In this document: positions 45,386 to 52,046 of the stretch, piece by piece
Numbering within the stretch: the first letter of the stretch is position 1
Layout of the letters: each line of letters starts with the position of its first letter
From: Actinotalea endophytica
GTDB taxonomy: Bacteria > Actinomycetota > Actinomycetes > Actinomycetales > Cellulomonadaceae
Length of the DNA stretch: 60,775 bases
Reading direction: 5' to 3'
NCBI RefSeq assembly: GCF_025717005.1
Contig: NZ_JAOVZU010000011.1
Coordinates: 1-60,775 of the forward strand
Notes under the pieces: generated by a model
What the model was told of the DNA's origin: nothing
The model's input: only the letters and a program-made list of their open reading frames with translations
The model's database searches: none
Translations under genes and position numbers: made by a program

Positions 45386-46360
45386 TCACGCCTGCAGCGC
45401 ATCCAGGCAGGCCCGGTACAGCGGGCGGTCGTCCACCTCGCCGGCCTCGACACGGGAGTGCGCGCGCGTCCCGTCCGTCGTGGCGAGCACCACGAGCGTG
45501 AACCCCGGCCCACCCCCGCCGTGGCCGACGACCCTGGCCGGTCGCCCCGACGTCATCAGCCCGAGCCCGTAGCCGGGCTCGTCGAGGGGGTGCCCGGGCG
45601 CGTCGACCGCCCGCCCCTCGCTCATCCGACGCATCACGTCGTGGCCGAGGTGCCCGGCCGCGACGCCGCGGACCAGCGTGGCGAGACCGCGCCCGTCGGT
45701 GACGAAGGTGCCGGGGTAGACCCACCCCGGGTCGTACGCGGCGAGCTGCGGCTCGACCGGGAGCGACGCGGCGACCCCGGCCCAGTCGGCCCGGGTCACG
45801 AACGGCCGCGCGTCGATCCCGAGCGGCGCAAGGACGCGTGCGGTGAGCACGTCGTGCAGCGGTGCACCGTCGTGCTCCTCGAGGGCGCGCCGCACCAGCA
45901 GGTAGCCGACGTTCGAGTACCGGAACGCCCCCGGGGTGGCGAGCGGCTCGCGTGCCGCCCGGGCGAGCACCTCGGCGGCCGGCCAGGCGTCCTCGCGGGC
46001 GGCGACGGCCGCGCGGTACTCGGGCCACCCGGCGTAGTCGCCGAGTCCCGACCTGTGCGCGAGCAGGTCGCCGACCGTGAGTGCCGCGAGCGGTCCGGGC
46101 GCCTCGGTGAGGCGCCCGATCGGTGCATCGAGCGGCAGCCCCGCGCGCAGGACCGCGGCAGCGGTCGCCGTCTTCGCGACGCTGTAGGCGGGCACGAACG
46201 ACGGCGGGTCCGGGTCCGTGCCCGCCCGGCCCATGCCCGTCAGCGTGCTGCTCCCGCCTGCGGGCGTGCCGCTCCTGCCTGCGGGCGTGCTGCTCCCGCC
46301 AACGGGCGTGCCGCTCCTGCCTGCGGGCGTGCCGCTCCCGTCCTCACTCGCGCCGCTCAC
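45386..46360 (-). CDS. Beta-lactamase-fold serine hydrolase without signal peptide
   Basis: The 324-residue protein has the class C-like motifs: S-x-x-K in YSVAKTA near residue 60, Y-S-N in RYSNVGY near 148, and HGGGGPG near 285. These make it a serine hydrolase of the penicillin-binding/esterase group (beta-lactamase family PF00144). Residues 3-40 are a seven-residue repeat rich in Ser, Gly, Thr and Pro (SGTPAGR and variants). No signal peptide or membrane anchor is seen, so it may stay in the cytoplasm, unusual for a cell-wall enzyme. It overlaps the anti-sigma gene by ATGA and is the last gene of the SigK-like operon. Confidence 0.75.
   Translation of the reverse strand: MSGASEDGSGTPAGRSGTPVGGSSTPAGRSGTPAGGSSTLTGMGRAGTDPDPPSFVPAYSVAKTATAAAVLRAGLPLDAPIGRLTEAPGPLAALTVGDLLAHRSGLGDYAGWPEYRAAVAAREDAWPAAEVLARAAREPLATPGAFRYSNVGYLLVRRALEEHDGAPLHDVLTARVLAPLGIDARPFVTRADWAGVAASLPVEPQLAAYDPGWVYPGTFVTDGRGLATLVRGVAAGHLGHDVMRRMSEGRAVDAPGHPLDEPGYGLGLMTSGRPARVVGHGGGGPGFTLVVLATTDGTRAHSRVEAGEVDDRPLYRACLDALQA
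46244..46348 (-). repeat. 21-bp tandem repeat at the 5' end of the serine hydrolase gene
   Basis: Units of 21 bases such as CGTGCCGCTCCTGCCTGCGGG start at 46244, 46265, 46286, 46307 and 46328 (the last diverging). They stay in frame and encode the N-terminal heptad repeats. Confidence 0.85.
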
Positions 46361-47103
46361 AGGTGCAGCTCGGCGAGGTACTCGCCGGTGGGTTCCTCCG
46401 AGCCGCCGGACGGCTCCTCGGTCACCATGAACGCCGCCACGTCCGACAGGTCGCCCTCGACGAGCGCGGTCACGTCGCCGTCGCGCGGCATGAACGTCGG
46501 ACCCGCGACCATCGAGCCGTCACCGTGCATCATCCACACCTGGTAGACCATGCCCGAGTCCGGCATCGGCACGTCCGAGCCCATCACGGCCGCGGCGTCC
46601 ATGTCCTCGCTCATCACGAGGTGGCTCGCCCCGAGACCGAGGTCGTGGCTCACCATGTCCGGCGCGGAGACGATCTTCATCACCTCGGCCTGGAGCTGCT
46701 CGGACGCGCGATCGGCACGCTGCGCCTGCACGAGGAGCGTGCCGCCGACCGCGAGCAGGACGGCGATCGACGCGGCGACGGCCACGGTCGGCCAGGACGC
46801 CCAGCGTGCAGCGGCCCGACGGCGGGCGCGTCCGGCCGACGAGCCGGCGGGTGCGCGGTTCGGGACGAGCGGTGGCACCTGGGGTGTGCGGCGGACCTGT
46901 TCGAGCACCGCGTCGCGCAGCGCCGGGGGTGGCGCAACGGACTCGGCTGCGGCCATCCGCGAGGTGGCCTCGCGCAGCGACGTCACCTCGGCGGTGCAGT
47001 CGGTGCACGCCGGCAGGTGCGCCTCGAACGCCGCGCGCTCCTCGGGGTCGAGGGCGTCGAGGACGTAGGCGCCGGTCAGGGCGTGCAGGTTCGTCTCGCT
47101 CAT
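46357..47103 (-). CDS. RskA-like anti-sigma factor (zinc-binding type)
   Basis: The 248-residue membrane protein has an N-terminal anti-sigma domain with the zinc motif HLPACTDC at about 28-36. A basic linker, one transmembrane helix at about 105-127 and an extracytoplasmic RskA domain with SHLVMSEDMDAAAV and VYQVWMMHGDGSMV follow. Such proteins hold SigK at the membrane until a signal triggers cleavage. Both the sigma stop and the serine hydrolase start overlap it. The signal is unknown; the dipZ/tpx neighbourhood suggests redox stress. Confidence 0.88.
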   Translation of the reverse strand: MSETNLHALTGAYVLDALDPEERAAFEAHLPACTDCTAEVTSLREATSRMAAAESVAPPPALRDAVLEQVRRTPQVPPLVPNRAPAGSSAGRARRRAAARWASWPTVAVAASIAVLLAVGGTLLVQAQRADRASEQLQAEVMKIVSAPDMVSHDLGLGASHLVMSEDMDAAAVMGSDVPMPDSGMVYQVWMMHGDGSMVAGPTFMPRDGDVTALVEGDLSDVAAFMVTEEPSGGSEEPTGEYLAELHL

Positions 47104-47690
47104 CGGTCCACCTCCTCGACGTGCAGAGCATCCCGCAACCGGATCAGGCCGTCGCGGATCCGGGTCTTGGCCGTGCCGAGCGGCACGGCCAGCGCGGCGG
47201 ACACCTCTTGGTGGGTGTAGCCACGCCAGTAGGCCATCTCGATGGCCTCGCGCTGGACGGCCGAGAGCCCCGCCAGGGCGCGGCGCACCCGAGCACCCTC
47301 GAGCGACCGGTGCGCGGCGAGCGGCACCTCGTCGGGCTGGGGGACGTCGTGCACGGCGGCGGCCTTCTCGCGAACGCCGGACTGGGTCTCCTCCCGTCGA
47401 ACCCGGTCGACCGCGCGACGGTGGGCGATGGTCAGGATCCAGGCCATGGCCGATCCCCGGTCGGGGTCGAACCTCGGTGCCTGGCGCCAGACCTCGACGA
47501 GGGCCTCCTGGGAGACGTCCTGGGCGAGGTCGGGGTCGCGCACCACGCGCACCGCCAGGCCGTGGACCGGCCCGGCGATGCGCGGGTAGAGCGCGTCGAA
47601 GGCGGCTGCGTCGCCGCGGCCCACCGCGACGAGCAGCTCCTCCGGACTCGGCGTCGGGTCCGGCACGCCGAGCGCCCGATCGACCTTCAC
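47100..47690 (-). CDS. sigK: SigK-like ECF RNA polymerase sigma factor
   Basis: The 196-residue sigma factor has region 2 in AFDALYPRIAGPVHGLAVRV and DLAQDVSQEALVEVWRQAPR, with AWILTIAHRRAVDRVRR, and region 4 in LSAVQREAIEMAYWRGYTHQ and VPLGTAKTRIRDGLIRLR. The pattern fits ECF19/SigK. GTG 47690 lies one base after the stop of the repeat lipoprotein and its stop overlaps the anti-sigma gene. The promoter CCATCC-N16-CGAACC upstream of the operon resembles the mycobacterial SigK consensus, so it probably drives its own operon and dipZ (inference). Confidence 0.88.
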   Translation of the reverse strand: MKVDRALGVPDPTPSPEELLVAVGRGDAAAFDALYPRIAGPVHGLAVRVVRDPDLAQDVSQEALVEVWRQAPRFDPDRGSAMAWILTIAHRRAVDRVRREETQSGVREKAAAVHDVPQPDEVPLAAHRSLEGARVRRALAGLSAVQREAIEMAYWRGYTHQEVSAALAVPLGTAKTRIRDGLIRLRDALHVEEVDR

Positions 47691-47691
47691 G

Positions 47692-47976
47692 TCAGCCGTC
47701 GCTCCCGTCGGTCATGGTGTCGTCGGTCATGCTGTCCTCGGACATGGTGTCGTCGGTCATGCTGTCCTCGGACATCGTGTCATCCGACATGCTGTCGTCG
47801 GTCATCGAGTCGTCGGACATGGTGTCGTCGGTCATCGAGTCGTCGGACATCGTGTCGTCCGTCATGGACTCGTCGGACATCGAGTCCTCCGAGGCCGGTG
47901 CGGTGTCGTTGCACGCGGTCAGCAGCGACGCGGCGAGCACGGCTGCGGCGGGCACGGCGATCAGTCGGCGGTTCAT
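47692..47976 (-). CDS. Met/Asp/Ser/Thr pentapeptide-repeat lipoprotein in the SigK operon
   Basis: The 94-residue product has a signal peptide with lipobox LLTAC near residue 22. Nearly the whole mature part is twelve copies of a five-residue unit, consensus [DE][DE][ST]M[ST], for example DDSMT and DDTMS. It is therefore strongly acidic with a Met every fifth residue. I know of no standard family with this exact repeat; MXKDX repeat proteins have a similar spacing of Met and Asp. It occupies the place where other SigK loci have fasciclin lipoproteins. Metal binding or sacrificial Met oxidation are possible roles (inference). ATG 47976 follows GGAGG. Confidence 0.8.
   Translation of the reverse strand: MNRRLIAVPAAAVLAASLLTACNDTAPASEDSMSDESMTDDTMSDDSMTDDTMSDDSMTDDSMSDDTMSEDSMTDDTMSEDSMTDDTMTDGSDG
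47705..47885 (-). repeat. 15-bp tandem repeat encoding the Met/Asp pentapeptides
   Basis: About twelve degenerate units of 15 bases (GTCGTCGGTCATCG type) run through the lipoprotein gene, keep frame, and alternate Ser/Thr codons. Unit number may vary between strains. Confidence 0.85.
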
Positions 47977-48014
47977 GGGTCCTCCCGAAGGGCGCAGGTG
48001 TTCCGGACGGGAGT

Positions 48015-48042
48015 GGTTCGCGCGACCGAGCCCGGCGGATGG
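48015..48042 (-). promoter_or_regulatory. SigK-type promoter of the lipoprotein-sigK operon
   Basis: On the minus strand CCATCC (48042-48037), 16 bases and CGAACC (48020-48015) match the promoter in front of dipZ exactly in both hexamers and spacing. The -35 lies inside the loop and stem of the flotillin terminator. A leader of about 30 bases with GGGAGGACC would follow. Confidence 0.6.
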
Positions 48043-48060
48043 GTCCGCCGGGCTCGGTCG
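48023..48060 (-). terminator. Strong terminator after the flotillin gene
   Basis: CGACCGAGCCCGGCGGA (48023-48039) pairs perfectly with its complement at 48044-48060, leaving a four-base loop: a 17-bp stem. It ends the leftward flotillin message and overlaps the next promoter. Confidence 0.85.
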
Positions 48061-48088
48061 CCGTGCCTCGTCTCGAGGTGCGGGGTGG

Positions 48089-49609
48089 TCAGGCCTTGGC
48101 GCCACCGTTGGTGGGCGCGACCGCGGTCACCTCGGCGCCGCCGGTGAAGCGATCGAGCAGCGCCTGCAGATCGAAGCCGGTGGTGTTCTTGAGCATGGCC
48201 AGGGTCTGGGTCAGGTTGTCCGTGACCTGCTTGGGCAGGGCTGCGGCGCCGTCCGTCGACAGCACGGTCAGCTGGTCGATCGCGGCCATCGGTGCGGCGA
48301 CCTCGTGCGCGACCTGGGGCAGCACCTCGACCAGCATCTGGAGGATCGCGGCCTCGTTGTACCGCGCGAACGCCTCCGCACGCTTGTTCATCGCCTCGGC
48401 CTCGGCCCGGCCGGTCGCGAGGATCGCGCTCGCCTGCGCCTCACCCTCGGCGCGCAGGGCCTCGGCCTGCGCGACCCGCAGGGACTTGTCCGCCTCGCCG
48501 CGCCGCTGGCCCTCGATCGCCTCCGCGTCGGCGAGCGCGGAGCGCCGCGCCTTCTCGGCCTCGCCGGACAGCCGCTGCTGCTCGGCGTCGGCCTCGGCGG
48601 CGGCGATGCCGGCAGCCTTGTTGGCCTCGGCCTGGGCGATCGCCGCGTTCCTGGCGGCCTCGGCCTCCTGCTCGACGCGGTATCGCGCGGCGTCGGCGGG
48701 CTTGCGCACCTCGGTGTCGAGCTGGCGCTCGGTGAGCGCGGCCTGGCGGACCGCGACCTTCTCCTGCTCGGTGAGGATCGCCTGGTCGCGGTCGGCCCGG
48801 GCGAGTGGACCGGCTGCGGCCGCCTGGGCGAAGGCGGCGTCGGTCTCCGCCTTGATCTCGGACTGCTTGAGGGCCAGCTCGCGCTGGGAGATCGCGATCT
48901 CCTGCTCGGCGGCGAGCCGGGCCTGCTCGGCGGCCTGGCGTGCGTTCGCCTCGGCGATCGCCGCGGTCTGGCCGACGCGCGCCGCCTCGGGCCGGCCGAG
49001 GTCGGACAGGTAGGTGCCGTCGTCGGTGATGTCCTGGATCTGGAACGTGTCCAGCACCAGTCCCTGGCCGGTCAGCGAGGACTCGGACTCGTCCGCGACA
49101 CGCTGCGCGAACGCCGCACGGTCGCGGATGATCTGCTCGACCGTGAGCGAGCCGACGATCGATCGGAGCGAGCCTGCGAGCGTCTCCTGCGTGAAGGTCT
49201 CGATCTCGTCCTGCTGGGTGAGGAACCGCTGTGCGGCCGCCCGGATGGAGTCCTCGTTGCCGCCGACCTTGACGATCGCGACGCCGTCGAGGTTGAGCTT
49301 GACCCCTTGACCGGACACCGCGCCACGGATCTGGACCATGATCCGGCGGCTCGACAGGTCCAGGATGTGCAGCCGCTGGACGAACGGGACGACGAAGACC
49401 CCGCCGCCCATCACGACCTTCTGGCCGGACAGGTCGGTGGAGAGCTCACCGGTCTCCGGGTTGCGTACCTCGCGCCCCTTGCGTCCGGTCACGATGTACG
49501 CCTCGTTCGGTCCGGCCACCCGGTAGCGGGACGCGATGATCAGACCGACGAGGAGGACGAGCAGGACGAGCCCGAGGACGGCGATGAGCGTCACCGAGGC
49601 GTCGGACAT
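48089..49609 (-). CDS. Flotillin-like SPFH/band-7 membrane protein
   Basis: The 506-residue protein has an N-terminal helix at 6-26, an SPFH domain to about 200 and a long Ala/Glu-rich coiled coil at 205-430 (AEANARQAAEQARLAAEQEI). A C-terminal region with LVEVLPQVAHEV is like FloT/YqiK. Flotillins organise membrane microdomains. ATG 49609 is preceded by GGAAAGG. A partner NfeD-like gene lies upstream on the same strand, the usual arrangement of these systems. The strong hairpin after the gene isolates it from the sigK operon. Confidence 0.9.
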   Translation of the reverse strand: MSDASVTLIAVLGLVLLVLLVGLIIASRYRVAGPNEAYIVTGRKGREVRNPETGELSTDLSGQKVVMGGGVFVVPFVQRLHILDLSSRRIMVQIRGAVSGQGVKLNLDGVAIVKVGGNEDSIRAAAQRFLTQQDEIETFTQETLAGSLRSIVGSLTVEQIIRDRAAFAQRVADESESSLTGQGLVLDTFQIQDITDDGTYLSDLGRPEAARVGQTAAIAEANARQAAEQARLAAEQEIAISQRELALKQSEIKAETDAAFAQAAAAGPLARADRDQAILTEQEKVAVRQAALTERQLDTEVRKPADAARYRVEQEAEAARNAAIAQAEANKAAGIAAAEADAEQQRLSGEAEKARRSALADAEAIEGQRRGEADKSLRVAQAEALRAEGEAQASAILATGRAEAEAMNKRAEAFARYNEAAILQMLVEVLPQVAHEVAAPMAAIDQLTVLSTDGAAALPKQVTDNLTQTLAMLKNTTGFDLQALLDRFTGGAEVTAVAPTNGGAKA

Positions 49610-49703
49610 GGCCGACCGGCCTTTCCGGGCATGAGGGGTGCCCAGGTGGAAGTGGTGTGGACGCGCGGTCCTGCCCCCGATCTCGTCCCGCGCGGGGTCG
49701 ACG

Positions 49704-50201
49704 TCACCCGGTTTGCCGGGCGACCATCACTGCGGTGGGGCTGAGGACCGTCGTGACGACCACGGCGGTTCCGCTGGGCAACGGCTCCGCGGCCCGCGCG
49801 TTGAGGCGCGTGATGTGCCCGGCGGCCACGACGCTCACCATCCCGTAGCCGGCGTCGGGGACTGCCTCGACGACGGTGCCGGCGAGACCCACCAGCCCCG
49901 AGGTGCGGACGTTCGACTCGTCGCCGCCGCGCATCAGGCGGACGCTCGCCACCCCGACACCCGTTCCGACGACCGCACCCGCGCCGAGCCCGGCCAGGAT
50001 CGCGATCCCGCTCGAGGCCCCCGCATCCAGGGTCAGCGCGCCCACGAAGCCGAAGGCGGAGAGGAAGCCCGCGACGGCGAGCCCGGACAGTGCGTCCGGC
50101 CCGACGCCTTCGAGGACCCCGTCGAGGAAGTCACCCACGAGCAGTGAGATCAGCAGCAGGACGATGCCGACACCGCCGATGACGAGCATCGTGATCTGCA
50201 T
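49704..50201 (-). CDS. NfeD-like membrane protein with OB-fold domain
   Basis: The 165-residue protein has helices at about 3-23, 41-61 and 65-92 and then a soluble beta domain with SGLVGLAGTVVEAVPDAGYG and VVVTTVLSPTAVMVAR, an OB-like fold as in NfeD proteins. NfeD proteins work with flotillins at the membrane. ATG 50201 has AGGGGG upstream; longer frames lack a ribosome binding site. The flotillin gene starts about 95 bases downstream of its stop. Confidence 0.8.
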   Translation of the reverse strand: MQITMLVIGGVGIVLLLISLLVGDFLDGVLEGVGPDALSGLAVAGFLSAFGFVGALTLDAGASSGIAILAGLGAGAVVGTGVGVASVRLMRGGDESNVRTSGLVGLAGTVVEAVPDAGYGMVSVVAAGHITRLNARAAEPLPSGTAVVVTTVLSPTAVMVARQTG

Positions 50202-50326
50202 CGCTGCCCCCTGACCCGCGTATCGACACCTGCGCCACGACGGACGGGCGCCCCGCAGGAGCGTAGCGGGCGCACCGGCCCCAGGGACGGGACAGCGGCG
50301 TGACCACGCACGGTCGGGGCCCGGGT

Positions 50327-52012
50327 TCACCCGAACGTGAAGGCGTACGCCTGGATCCCGGGTCCGGCGGTCAGGTGCAGCACGTCGCTGGTCTCGCCGC
50401 CGTCGTAGAGCGTGTACAGCGCCGGGCTGCCGGACACGTCGACCTCGTGCGTCTCGCCGCCGACGGTCACGGTCACGGCACCGTCGCCGGCCAGCACCAG
50501 GTAAACGGCCGAGGCGTGGAACCCGAGCGTGAGCCGGGCGTCGTCACCCGACTCGACGTACTCGGCCTCGACGGTCCAGGTGCCGCCGAGCGAGAAGGTC
50601 GACTGCGGCGGGTGGTGGTCGAGCGTGTAGGTGGCCGGCTCGCCCGGCGTGACGCCGGCGTTGGTGTGCGGACCCATCCGAGCCGACCCCAGGTACGTCT
50701 CGGGTGTGCGGTCGGCGGTCAGCCCGCTCGCCGCGTCGGCGGTCCCGGTCCCGTCGGCCGGCGCACCGAGCAGCTCTTGGATCAGCGCCTCGGTCTCGGC
50801 GTACGCACCCTCGCCGTAGTGCACCTGGCGCACCTCGCCGGTCCGGTCGATGAGGTAGTGCGCGGGCCAGTAGTGCTGGTCGTAGGCGCGCCACGTCGCG
50901 AAGTCGTTGTCGAGCGCCACCGGGTACGTGACACCGAGGCGTGCGGCGTTGTCCTCGACGTTGGCCGGGACCTGCTCGAAGGCGAACTCGGGGGAGTGCA
51001 CGCCGAGCACCACGAGCCCGTCGTCGTGATACGTGTCGTACCACTGCGTGAGGTAGGGGAGCGTCCGCTGGCAGTTGATGCAGGAGTAGGTCCAGAAGTC
51101 GAGCAGCACGACCTTGCCGCGCAGGTCGGCGAGCTCGAGCGGTGCGCTGTTGATCCAGCCGGTGATCCCGGTCAGCTCGGGCGCGGTGCCGCAGTCGGCG
51201 AGCTGCGAGGGGTCGGCGGCGCACTCGTCGAACGTGCGCGGACCGGTGCTCGCGGCACCCACCTCACCGCCGGTGCCGGCTTCCCCGGCCAGCGCGTCGA
51301 GCTGGGCCCGGACGGCGGTGTCGTTCTCCACCCGGTCGCTGAGGCCGGAGAGCCAGGACGGCGTGAGCCGCTGCAGGGGCTCGGCGATGTTGGTCGCGAT
51401 CACCAGCGCGGTCACGATCATGATCACGCCACCGGCGGTGCGCACGGCGGGGGTGCGCTCGCGGAACGCCTTGACCCGCCCGAGGATCGCGCCGCCCGCG
51501 CTCGCCATCACGAGCAGCGGGATCGCGATGCCGACGCAGTAGGCCGCCGTGAGGACGACGAGGCCCGGGCCGATCTGGGCGGTCGCCGCCAGGACCGTGA
51601 TCGAGGCCAGGATCGGCCCCGCGCACGGGACGAACACCAGGCCCAGCCCCAGGCCGAGCACGAACCCGTTGCCGTTCCGGTCCAGGGCCGGCATCCGGGT
51701 CCGCGCGAACGGTGCCTCGAGCAGGTGGCCGAACCGCGGCCACACGAGCCCGAGCCCGACGACGCCGAGGATCGCGACGCCGATCCAGCGCAGCAGGTCC
51801 GCCGGTAGGTGCAGCAGGGACAGCAACGCGCCGCCGAGCAGGGTGAACACCCCGAACGACAGCACCAGCCCACCCACCACGACCCAGGGCCGGCGCCGTG
51901 ACCCGGGTCCGGGCGCAGCGGTGGTGAGCACGACCGGGAGCACCGGCAGGACGCAGGGTGACAGGGCGGTGATGACGCCGGAGACGAGGCCGACGAGCAC
52001 GAGCGTGGTCAT
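50327..52012 (-). CDS. dipZ: DipZ: CcdA-like membrane domain fused to thioredoxin-like and C-terminal beta domains
   Basis: The 561-residue fusion carries electrons across the membrane. The CcdA/DsbD domain (about 1-215) has the two reactive cysteines in ALSPCVLPVLP and VPCAGPILAS. The redoxin domain at about 270-420 holds the active-site pair in SCINCQ, with DFWTYSC and GVHSPEFAFE typical of TlpA-like parts. The last 120 residues form a beta-rich DipZ domain (TWTVEAEYVESGD). In Mycobacterium tuberculosis dipZ belongs to the SigK regulon, and here a matching promoter and a sigK gene are near. ATG 52012 is probably leaderless. It likely reduces exported disulfides or peroxides. Confidence 0.92.
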   Translation of the reverse strand: MTTLVLVGLVSGVITALSPCVLPVLPVVLTTAAPGPGSRRRPWVVVGGLVLSFGVFTLLGGALLSLLHLPADLLRWIGVAILGVVGLGLVWPRFGHLLEAPFARTRMPALDRNGNGFVLGLGLGLVFVPCAGPILASITVLAATAQIGPGLVVLTAAYCVGIAIPLLVMASAGGAILGRVKAFRERTPAVRTAGGVIMIVTALVIATNIAEPLQRLTPSWLSGLSDRVENDTAVRAQLDALAGEAGTGGEVGAASTGPRTFDECAADPSQLADCGTAPELTGITGWINSAPLELADLRGKVVLLDFWTYSCINCQRTLPYLTQWYDTYHDDGLVVLGVHSPEFAFEQVPANVEDNAARLGVTYPVALDNDFATWRAYDQHYWPAHYLIDRTGEVRQVHYGEGAYAETEALIQELLGAPADGTGTADAASGLTADRTPETYLGSARMGPHTNAGVTPGEPATYTLDHHPPQSTFSLGGTWTVEAEYVESGDDARLTLGFHASAVYLVLAGDGAVTVTVGGETHEVDVSGSPALYTLYDGGETSDVLHLTAGPGIQAYAFTFG

Positions 52013-52018
52013 GCCAGA

Positions 52019-52046
52019 GGTTCGCCCGTCCGCCGTGGACGGATGG
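52019..52046 (-). promoter_or_regulatory. SigK-type promoter of dipZ
   Basis: On the minus strand CCATCC (52046-52041), 16 bases and CGAACC (52024-52019) are followed by six bases and ATG 52012. Hexamers and spacing equal those before the lipoprotein-sigK operon. No ribosome binding site is seen, so the message is probably leaderless. Confidence 0.6.

What the first reader, a model, noticed from the sequence alone, without database searches (positions are those of the whole stretch)
47100..52046. Two identical SigK-type promoters link a new repeat lipoprotein, sigK and dipZ in one regulon
CCATCC-N16-CGAACC stands in front of both the lipoprotein-sigK operon (48042-48015) and dipZ (52046-52019), with identical hexamers and spacing. 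I searched neighbouring starts by eye and did not see it elsewhere. In Mycobacterium tuberculosis SigK drives mpt83-dipZ-mpt70 and has a CCATCC -35 (established). The -10 here is shifted by one or two bases relative to that consensus. This suggests a compact redox/envelope regulon with a Met-rich lipoprotein in the place of MPT83.
Basis: partly seen in the sequence, partly recalled or inferred. Interest (0 to 1): 0.75.

Follow-up and report, generated by a model that had tools for sequence, protein, structure and literature searches.

The report
SigK regulon against methionine oxidation
Two matching switch sequences do tie a methionine-rich surface protein, its control gene sigK and the redox gene dipZ into one gene set, and the same switch elsewhere in the genome sits before a methionine-repair gene and related enzymes, which suggests that this poorly understood control system guards the cell surface against oxidation of methionine.

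Summary
In detail: CCATCC-N16-CGAACC precedes both the lipoprotein-sigK-rskA operon and dipZ. It is a conserved SigK promoter: C[A/C]ATCC-N15..17-CGAA lies within 1.1 kb upstream of sigK in 74 of 80 named loci against 0 of 80 in two controls, with N16 in 74 of 75 sites, so the -10 is not shifted. At dipZ, CGAA ends 8 nt before the ATG in 9 of 12 genes, a leaderless geometry.

In this genome CMATCC-N16-CGAA occurs 7 times (reversed control 0); six lie 8-78 nt before a start: lipoprotein-sigK, dipZ, msrA, a molybdopterin oxidoreductase, moeA-like, trxB. The first four recur in one or two close relatives; trxB and moeA were not seen to.

The lipoprotein matches the MXKDX repeat model, the type of Brucella's hypochlorite-defence peptide. 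RskA's outer part is Met-rich: 12 of 125 residues; 71 relatives have at most 5.

Best reading: a SigK/RskA branch that counters methionine oxidation in the envelope. Promoter and gene set are well supported; function is inferred. New variant of a known kind.

The parts
48015..48042 (-). SigK box CCATCC-N16-CGAACC of the lipoprotein-sigK-rskA operon
   Evidence: 40 nt from CGAA to the ATG; conserved upstream of the orthologous operons L045 and L046
52019..52046 (-). SigK box CCATCC-N16-CGAACC of dipZ; CGAA ends 8 nt before the ATG (leaderless geometry)
   Evidence: same 8-nt distance in 9 of 12 dipZ genes
47692..47976 (-). Met-rich repeat lipoprotein, 94 aa, MXKDX type
   Evidence: TIGR02953 42.4 bits, cut-off 41; 12 Met in 73 mature residues
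47706..47880 (.). 15-bp tandem repeat, 11.7 copies, coding the Met-rich part
47100..47690 (-). sigK, ECF sigma factor, no cysteine
   Evidence: NF007228 220.5 bits, just under its cut-off of 226; Sigma70_r2 and r4 over cut-off; no Cys
46357..47103 (-). rskA, anti-sigma factor with Met-rich ectodomain
   Evidence: RskA_C 73.5 bits, cut-off 29.4; zf-HC2; Met counts
50327..52012 (-). dipZ (CcdA-type membrane part, redoxin, C-terminal domain)
   Evidence: Pfam domains; nearest solved chain is DipZ 2hyx, E 6e-81
48022..48061 (-). 18-bp perfect hairpin just after the upstream flotillin gene; its loop and 3' arm overlap the -35 and spacer of the lipoprotein promoter; probably a terminator
   Evidence: fold, z -8.1
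48089..49609 (-). flotillin gene between dipZ and the lipoprotein; no evidence that it belongs to the regulon
   Evidence: Band_7, Flot; synteny kept in L045
52070..52561 (-). tpx, thiol peroxidase upstream of dipZ; no box found before it
   Evidence: NF001808 188 bits; only two boxes in the window

Best explanation
SigK, held by the membrane protein RskA, drives a small regulon that limits or repairs methionine oxidation at the cell surface. Shown: the boxes, their conservation and the genes behind them. Inferred: every functional step. An oxidant such as hypochlorite would act on the Met-rich RskA ectodomain, or otherwise trigger RskA, and free SigK. SigK then transcribes its own operon, whose Met-rich lipoprotein soaks up oxidant as methionine sulfoxide; dipZ, which carries reducing power outward across the membrane; msrA, for methionine sulfoxide inside the cell; and a membrane molybdopterin enzyme that may reduce sulfoxides outside or handle sulfur oxides. 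In this genome trxB and a moeA-like gene carry the box too.
For: Box upstream of sigK in 74 of 80 loci, controls 0 of 80. Six of seven genome hits 8-78 nt before starts. msrA box: exact in 2, one mismatch in 1 of the 3 genomes with this SigK type, 0 of 15 others; Mo oxidoreductase 3 of 3 against 0 of 8. Mo oxidoreductase lies within 4 kb upstream of sigK in 65 of 80 named loci and 22 of those 65 carry an exact box 8-9 nt before its start. MXKDX match. Met-rich RskA in six loci of this type, 7-14 Met, against at most 5 in 71 others; within one genome 14 against 0. Published parallel: BcrS of Brucella with an MXKDX peptide and MsrPQ-like proteins, hypochlorite-induced (PMC8315932, abstract and passages).
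Against: No expression data. MsrA shows no obvious export signal by eye, so it would not act on the lipoprotein directly. The Mo enzyme is nearer to sulfite dehydrogenases than to MsrP. The msrA box is nearly absent elsewhere (1 of 30 named genomes) and the three genomes that have it form one clade. trxB box 1 of 6; moeA box seen only here. In the relative G059 the box has 7 hits against 3 for the reversed control. Met-rich proteins can also bind copper or silver (recalled).
Confidence: 0.58

Rival explanations
1. An ordinary SigK envelope/thiol regulon: DipZ and partners handle disulfides of exported proteins, the lipoprotein is a surface spacer, and the methionine bias is incidental.
For: dipZ lies near sigK in 9 of 10 copies; G015 has a DsbE-like lipoprotein with a box; the box before trxB here.
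Against: msrA in the set, the MXKDX match and the Met-rich RskA are then unexplained.
Confidence: 0.24
2. A metal regulon: the Met-rich lipoprotein and Met-rich RskA ectodomain bind copper or silver.
For: Methionine clusters bind Cu(I) and Ag(I) (recalled).
Against: No copper gene stands behind any of the 7 boxes of this genome; Met is spaced every five residues among acidic residues rather than as MXM or MXXM (reading; spacing rule recalled).
Confidence: 0.12
3. The two sites are chance matches.
For: The motif is short; the two window sites alone are modest evidence (1 of 100 shuffles gave as many).
Against: 74 of 80 against 0 of 80; fixed distance to the start at dipZ and the Mo gene; orthologous sites in L045 and L046.
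Confidence: 0.02

Closest known systems
SigK-RskA regulon of Mycobacterium (mpt83-dipZ-mpt70)
   Same: ECF SigK with RskA, the same -35 type (recalled from the finding and the literature), sigK and dipZ in one regulon, a lipoprotein gene with the box
   Different: No fasciclin protein in this genome; a Met-rich repeat lipoprotein instead; msrA and a molybdopterin oxidoreductase added; SigK without cysteines; mycobacterial SigK genes are said to be restricted to two loci (PMC10540498, passage)
BcrS-AbcS / bcrXQP of Brucella and mrpX-yedYZ of Azospira
   Same: ECF sigma factor next to a Met-rich MXKDX-type protein plus methionine sulfoxide repair genes (PMC8315932, abstract and passages)
   Different: Another ECF group (ECF16 there) with its own promoter; peptide there, lipoprotein here; MsrQP-like proteins there, MsrA plus a sulfite-dehydrogenase-like Mo enzyme here. 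The Azospira paper was not held and is known here through citations
Neisserial sigma-E and MseR with msrAB
   Same: ECF sigma with a zinc-type anti-sigma drives a methionine sulfoxide reductase (PMC2893595, passages)
   Different: MseR is described there as unlike membrane-spanning anti-sigmas; no Met-rich protein or dipZ in the passages seen

Membership tests
SigK (ECF sigma factor) | Match to the SigK model NF007228 | tested here: inconclusive
   best model, E 1.5e-65, but 220.5 bits against a cut-off of 226
SigK (ECF sigma factor) | rskA directly downstream | tested here: met
   RskA_C and zf-HC2 over cut-off; RskA_N 26.5 against 27
SigK (ECF sigma factor) | SigK box C[A/C]ATCC-N16-CGAA before its own operon | tested here: met
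   norm in 74 of 80 loci
SigK (ECF sigma factor) | cysteine pair 133/183 (common, not required: 94% of ECF18 and 56% of ECF19 in PMC7509140, section 11) | tested here: not met
   no cysteine in this SigK
DipZ | CcdA-type membrane part, redoxin with CXXC, C-terminal domain | tested here: met
   PF02683, PF00578/PF08534, PF17991; nearest chain 2hyx DipZ; CINC read
MXKDX / MrpX-type Met-rich sink | pentapeptide repeat model TIGR02953 over its cut-off | tested here: met
   42.4 bits, cut-off 41; the G044 relative has 25.8, under it
MXKDX / MrpX-type Met-rich sink | scavenges hypochlorite by methionine oxidation | not testable with these tools
   needs experiment
MPT70/MPT83 fasciclin lipoprotein | fasciclin domain PF02469 | tested here: not met
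   no Pfam match of the lipoprotein; 0 of 3 genomes G000, G007, G015, while 4 of 14 control genomes rang
MsrP (molybdenum methionine sulfoxide reductase) | MsrP model NF003767 over its cut-off | tested here: not met
   51.8 bits against 207; SoxC and SorA models score higher but also under their cut-offs
MsrA | MsrA model TIGR00401 over its cut-off | tested here: met
   182 bits, cut-off 108.1; PF01625

The most novel reading that the evidence does not exclude
The Met-rich RskA ectodomain is itself the sensor: oxidation of its conserved methionines starts the release of SigK. The Met-rich lipoprotein is the freed acidic Met-rich linker of an MPT83-type lipoprotein that lost its fasciclin domain, and countering methionine oxidation is an old role of SigK-DipZ regulons, with the linkers of the fasciclin lipoproteins as part of it.
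Probability: 0.25. Interest if true: 0.82.

Novelty: new variant of a known kind. Interest (0 to 1): 0.62.

Why it matters
What SigK answers to is unsettled in the mycobacterial passages seen (the protease of RskA's first cut is called unknown in PMC7509140, section 3). This gene set gives a concrete signal to test, methionine oxidation outside the membrane, in environmental relatives. It would be an actinobacterial counterpart of the proteobacterial Met-rich sink systems, built on another sigma/anti-sigma pair. It also shows dipZ linked to sigK in Cellulomonadaceae, against a statement that full-length dipZ in Actinobacteria is exclusive to pathogens (PMC3078919, passage, citing a 2008 paper that I could not read).

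Tried and rejected
Rejected: a shifted -10; chance; N15 and N17 spacers as part of the regulon (eight of ten inside coding frames by my reading); trxB and moeA as core members (where two relatives were seen only as 18-kb stretches around the Mo gene and one more stretch each); the hairpin as the reason for the site (L045 and L046 have the box with other spacer letters; they were not folded).

One search ended with an error at its last locus and its output was cut; the missing loci were read again. In one search my script took base 1501 as the match start in every locus. Five loci have almost no upstream sequence (msrA: G005; Mo: G008, G012, G004, G013) and are left out of the counts, which gives 15 and 8; G003 has 557 bp for msrA. 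Four genus members gave no Mo match.

Caveats: genes were called by reading frame and composition, not by an annotation program. Most fasciclin proteins were recognised by a short motif or by eye; the Pfam model was run on one (L129). RskA Met counts take the last 125 residues of the frame; 75 of 80 named loci gave an RskA match, 71 without the four of this type. An earlier, narrower window gave 23 of 65 instead of 22 for the Mo box. In one search the opposite-strand control gave 4 of 65; four loci have the Mo gene inverted, which probably explains it, but I did not check each. Of the box hits in two relatives, 5 of 7 and 2 of 5 lie before genes of this set; reversed controls there were 3 and 0.
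Full report
What is there. On the minus strand the window holds tpx, dipZ, a small ORF without family match, a flotillin, then the lipoprotein, sigK and rskA. The genome (G000, 4.25 Mb in 20 contigs) is one of 19 genus members held. The nearest named relatives are Actinotalea lenta (L046; G007, also reached as G060) and a MAG (L045; G015, also G059).

Is it a SigK promoter? In 80 named sigK loci, mostly Nocardioides, C[A/C]ATCC-N15..17-CGAA lies within 1,100 bp upstream of the sigK match in 74, with spacing 16 in 74 of 75 sites; the reversed pattern and the opposite strand gave 0 of 80 each. Six lack it: L047, L048, L070, L072, L084, L088. L047 and L048 carry it before dipZ, which there lies directly upstream of sigK. 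Of 30 sigK loci of the window's genome and unnamed relatives, 24 have it in the stretch held upstream, up to 1.5 kb. That SigK sites are conserved across Actinobacteria is stated in PMC7509140 (passage).

dipZ. A close DipZ was found in 9 of 59 genomes, the window's own included, 10 copies; 9 of the 10 lie within 5 kb of a sigK. With L047 and L048 there are 12 dipZ genes: 10 carry an exact box, and in 9 CGAA ends exactly 8 nt before the ATG. L127 keeps CGAA at 8 nt with a poorer -35; L134 has the box at 30 nt; L132 has none. This fixed distance predicts a leaderless message. The same is seen at the molybdopterin oxidoreductase: 22 of 65 named loci carry an exact box, 8 nt (19) or 9 nt (3) before its start; 10 of the other 43 have it with one mismatch at that distance.

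The regulon in this genome. CMATCC-N16-CGAA has 7 hits against 0 for the reversed pattern. From CGAA to the start: dipZ 8, lipoprotein 40, moeA-like 41, msrA 69, Mo oxidoreductase 77, trxB 78 nt. The seventh lies over 200 nt from an HPr-like ORF. MsrA: TIGR00401 182 bits; Mo: PF00174; TrxB: TIGR01292 over its cut-off. moeA and HPr are named by eye.

Conservation. Three of the 19 genus members (G000, G015, G007) have this SigK type (77-78% identity to the window's). Their msrA has an exact box in two and a one-mismatch box in the third; 0 of 15 others with upstream sequence. Their Mo oxidoreductase has an exact box in 3 of 3; 0 of 8 others. The three are one clade in the MsrA tree (95/89), so this may be one evolutionary change. 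Independent support for the Mo enzyme is its position within 4 kb upstream of sigK in 65 of 80 named loci, 61 on the same strand. For msrA the wider test is negative: 1 of 30 named genomes. trxB: 1 of 6. moeA: not found in the stretches of G007 and G015 that I held. G015 adds a DsbE-like lipoprotein with a Met-rich linker and a box.

The lipoprotein. It has 12 Met in 73 mature residues, 27 acidic and no aromatic residues, is coded by 11.7 copies of a 15-bp repeat, and passes the MXKDX model. L045 and L046 have similar ones, 16.1% and 13.3% Met. In G044, of another family, a similar lipoprotein with an exact box lies between dipZ and sigK; it scores 25.8 bits on the same model, under its cut-off. 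No fasciclin was found in G000, G007, G015. In five family members (L235-L239) sigK, dipZ and a fasciclin lipoprotein lie together and each has a box; a second G044 locus (L233) has dipZ and such a lipoprotein with boxes. The linkers of these six hold 2-8 Met in 41-55 residues, against a median Met fraction of 0.029 over the 40 linkers parsed, some of them counted twice in overlapping loci. The repeat lipoprotein may be such a linker freed of its domain: an inference.

RskA. The last 125 residues hold 12 Met in the window, 11, 10, 7 and 10 in L045-L048 in that order, and 14 in G044's RskA beside the Met-rich lipoprotein. 71 other relatives have at most 5 (median 3); G044's other RskA has 0; the five fasciclin-dipZ family members have 1-3. 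Eight ectodomain columns are Met in at least four of the six and in none of five compared. The six lie in one supported SigK group (97/96) that also holds two sigK genes of another type, so the Met-rich state need not be independent in each.

Mechanism. The closest parallel is BcrS of Brucella, where an ECF sigma drives an MXKDX peptide with MsrQP-like proteins and answers hypochlorite (PMC8315932, abstract and passages). Neisserial sigma-E drives msrAB (PMC2893595, passages). By analogy the lipoprotein is a sacrificial methionine sink and RskA a plausible methionine sensor. Against: MsrA shows no obvious export signal; the Mo enzyme is nearer to sulfite dehydrogenases than to MsrP; nothing here measures expression.

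Print. Searches for SigK with dipZ/mpt83, molybdopterin, methionine sulfoxide, msrA or fasciclin, for ECF19, MrpX and anti-sigma with methionine oxidation listed no paper whose title or abstract start reports this regulon. Searches showed only part of their matches, and the 2008 paper on SigK regulon evolution was not held, so priority is not settled.

Noticed in passing
L231 and L232 (G044): One genome has two sigK-rskA pairs: the RskA beside the Met-rich lipoprotein has 14 Met in its last 125 residues, the other has 0.
   Followed up: yes
L192:4199-4835 (G015): A DsbE-like lipoprotein with a short Met-rich linker has an exact SigK box 23 nt before its start.
   Followed up: partly
L233, L235-L239: Fasciclin lipoproteins beside dipZ have acidic, Met-containing linkers (2-8 Met) that resemble the window's repeat lipoprotein.
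   Followed up: partly
window 48022-48061: An 18-bp perfect hairpin after the flotillin gene overlaps the -35 and spacer of the lipoprotein promoter; terminator and promoter may compete.
   Followed up: partly
L144 (G060:C1:1599036-1599061): In A. lenta an exact box lies 18 nt before an ORF that looks like a fatty-acid desaturase (named by eye).
   Followed up: no
L023, L025, L026, L029, L035: Other genus members have a different, cysteine-containing SigK behind a long upstream gene that I did not identify; in four of these five loci an exact box lies about 1.5 kb upstream.
   Followed up: no
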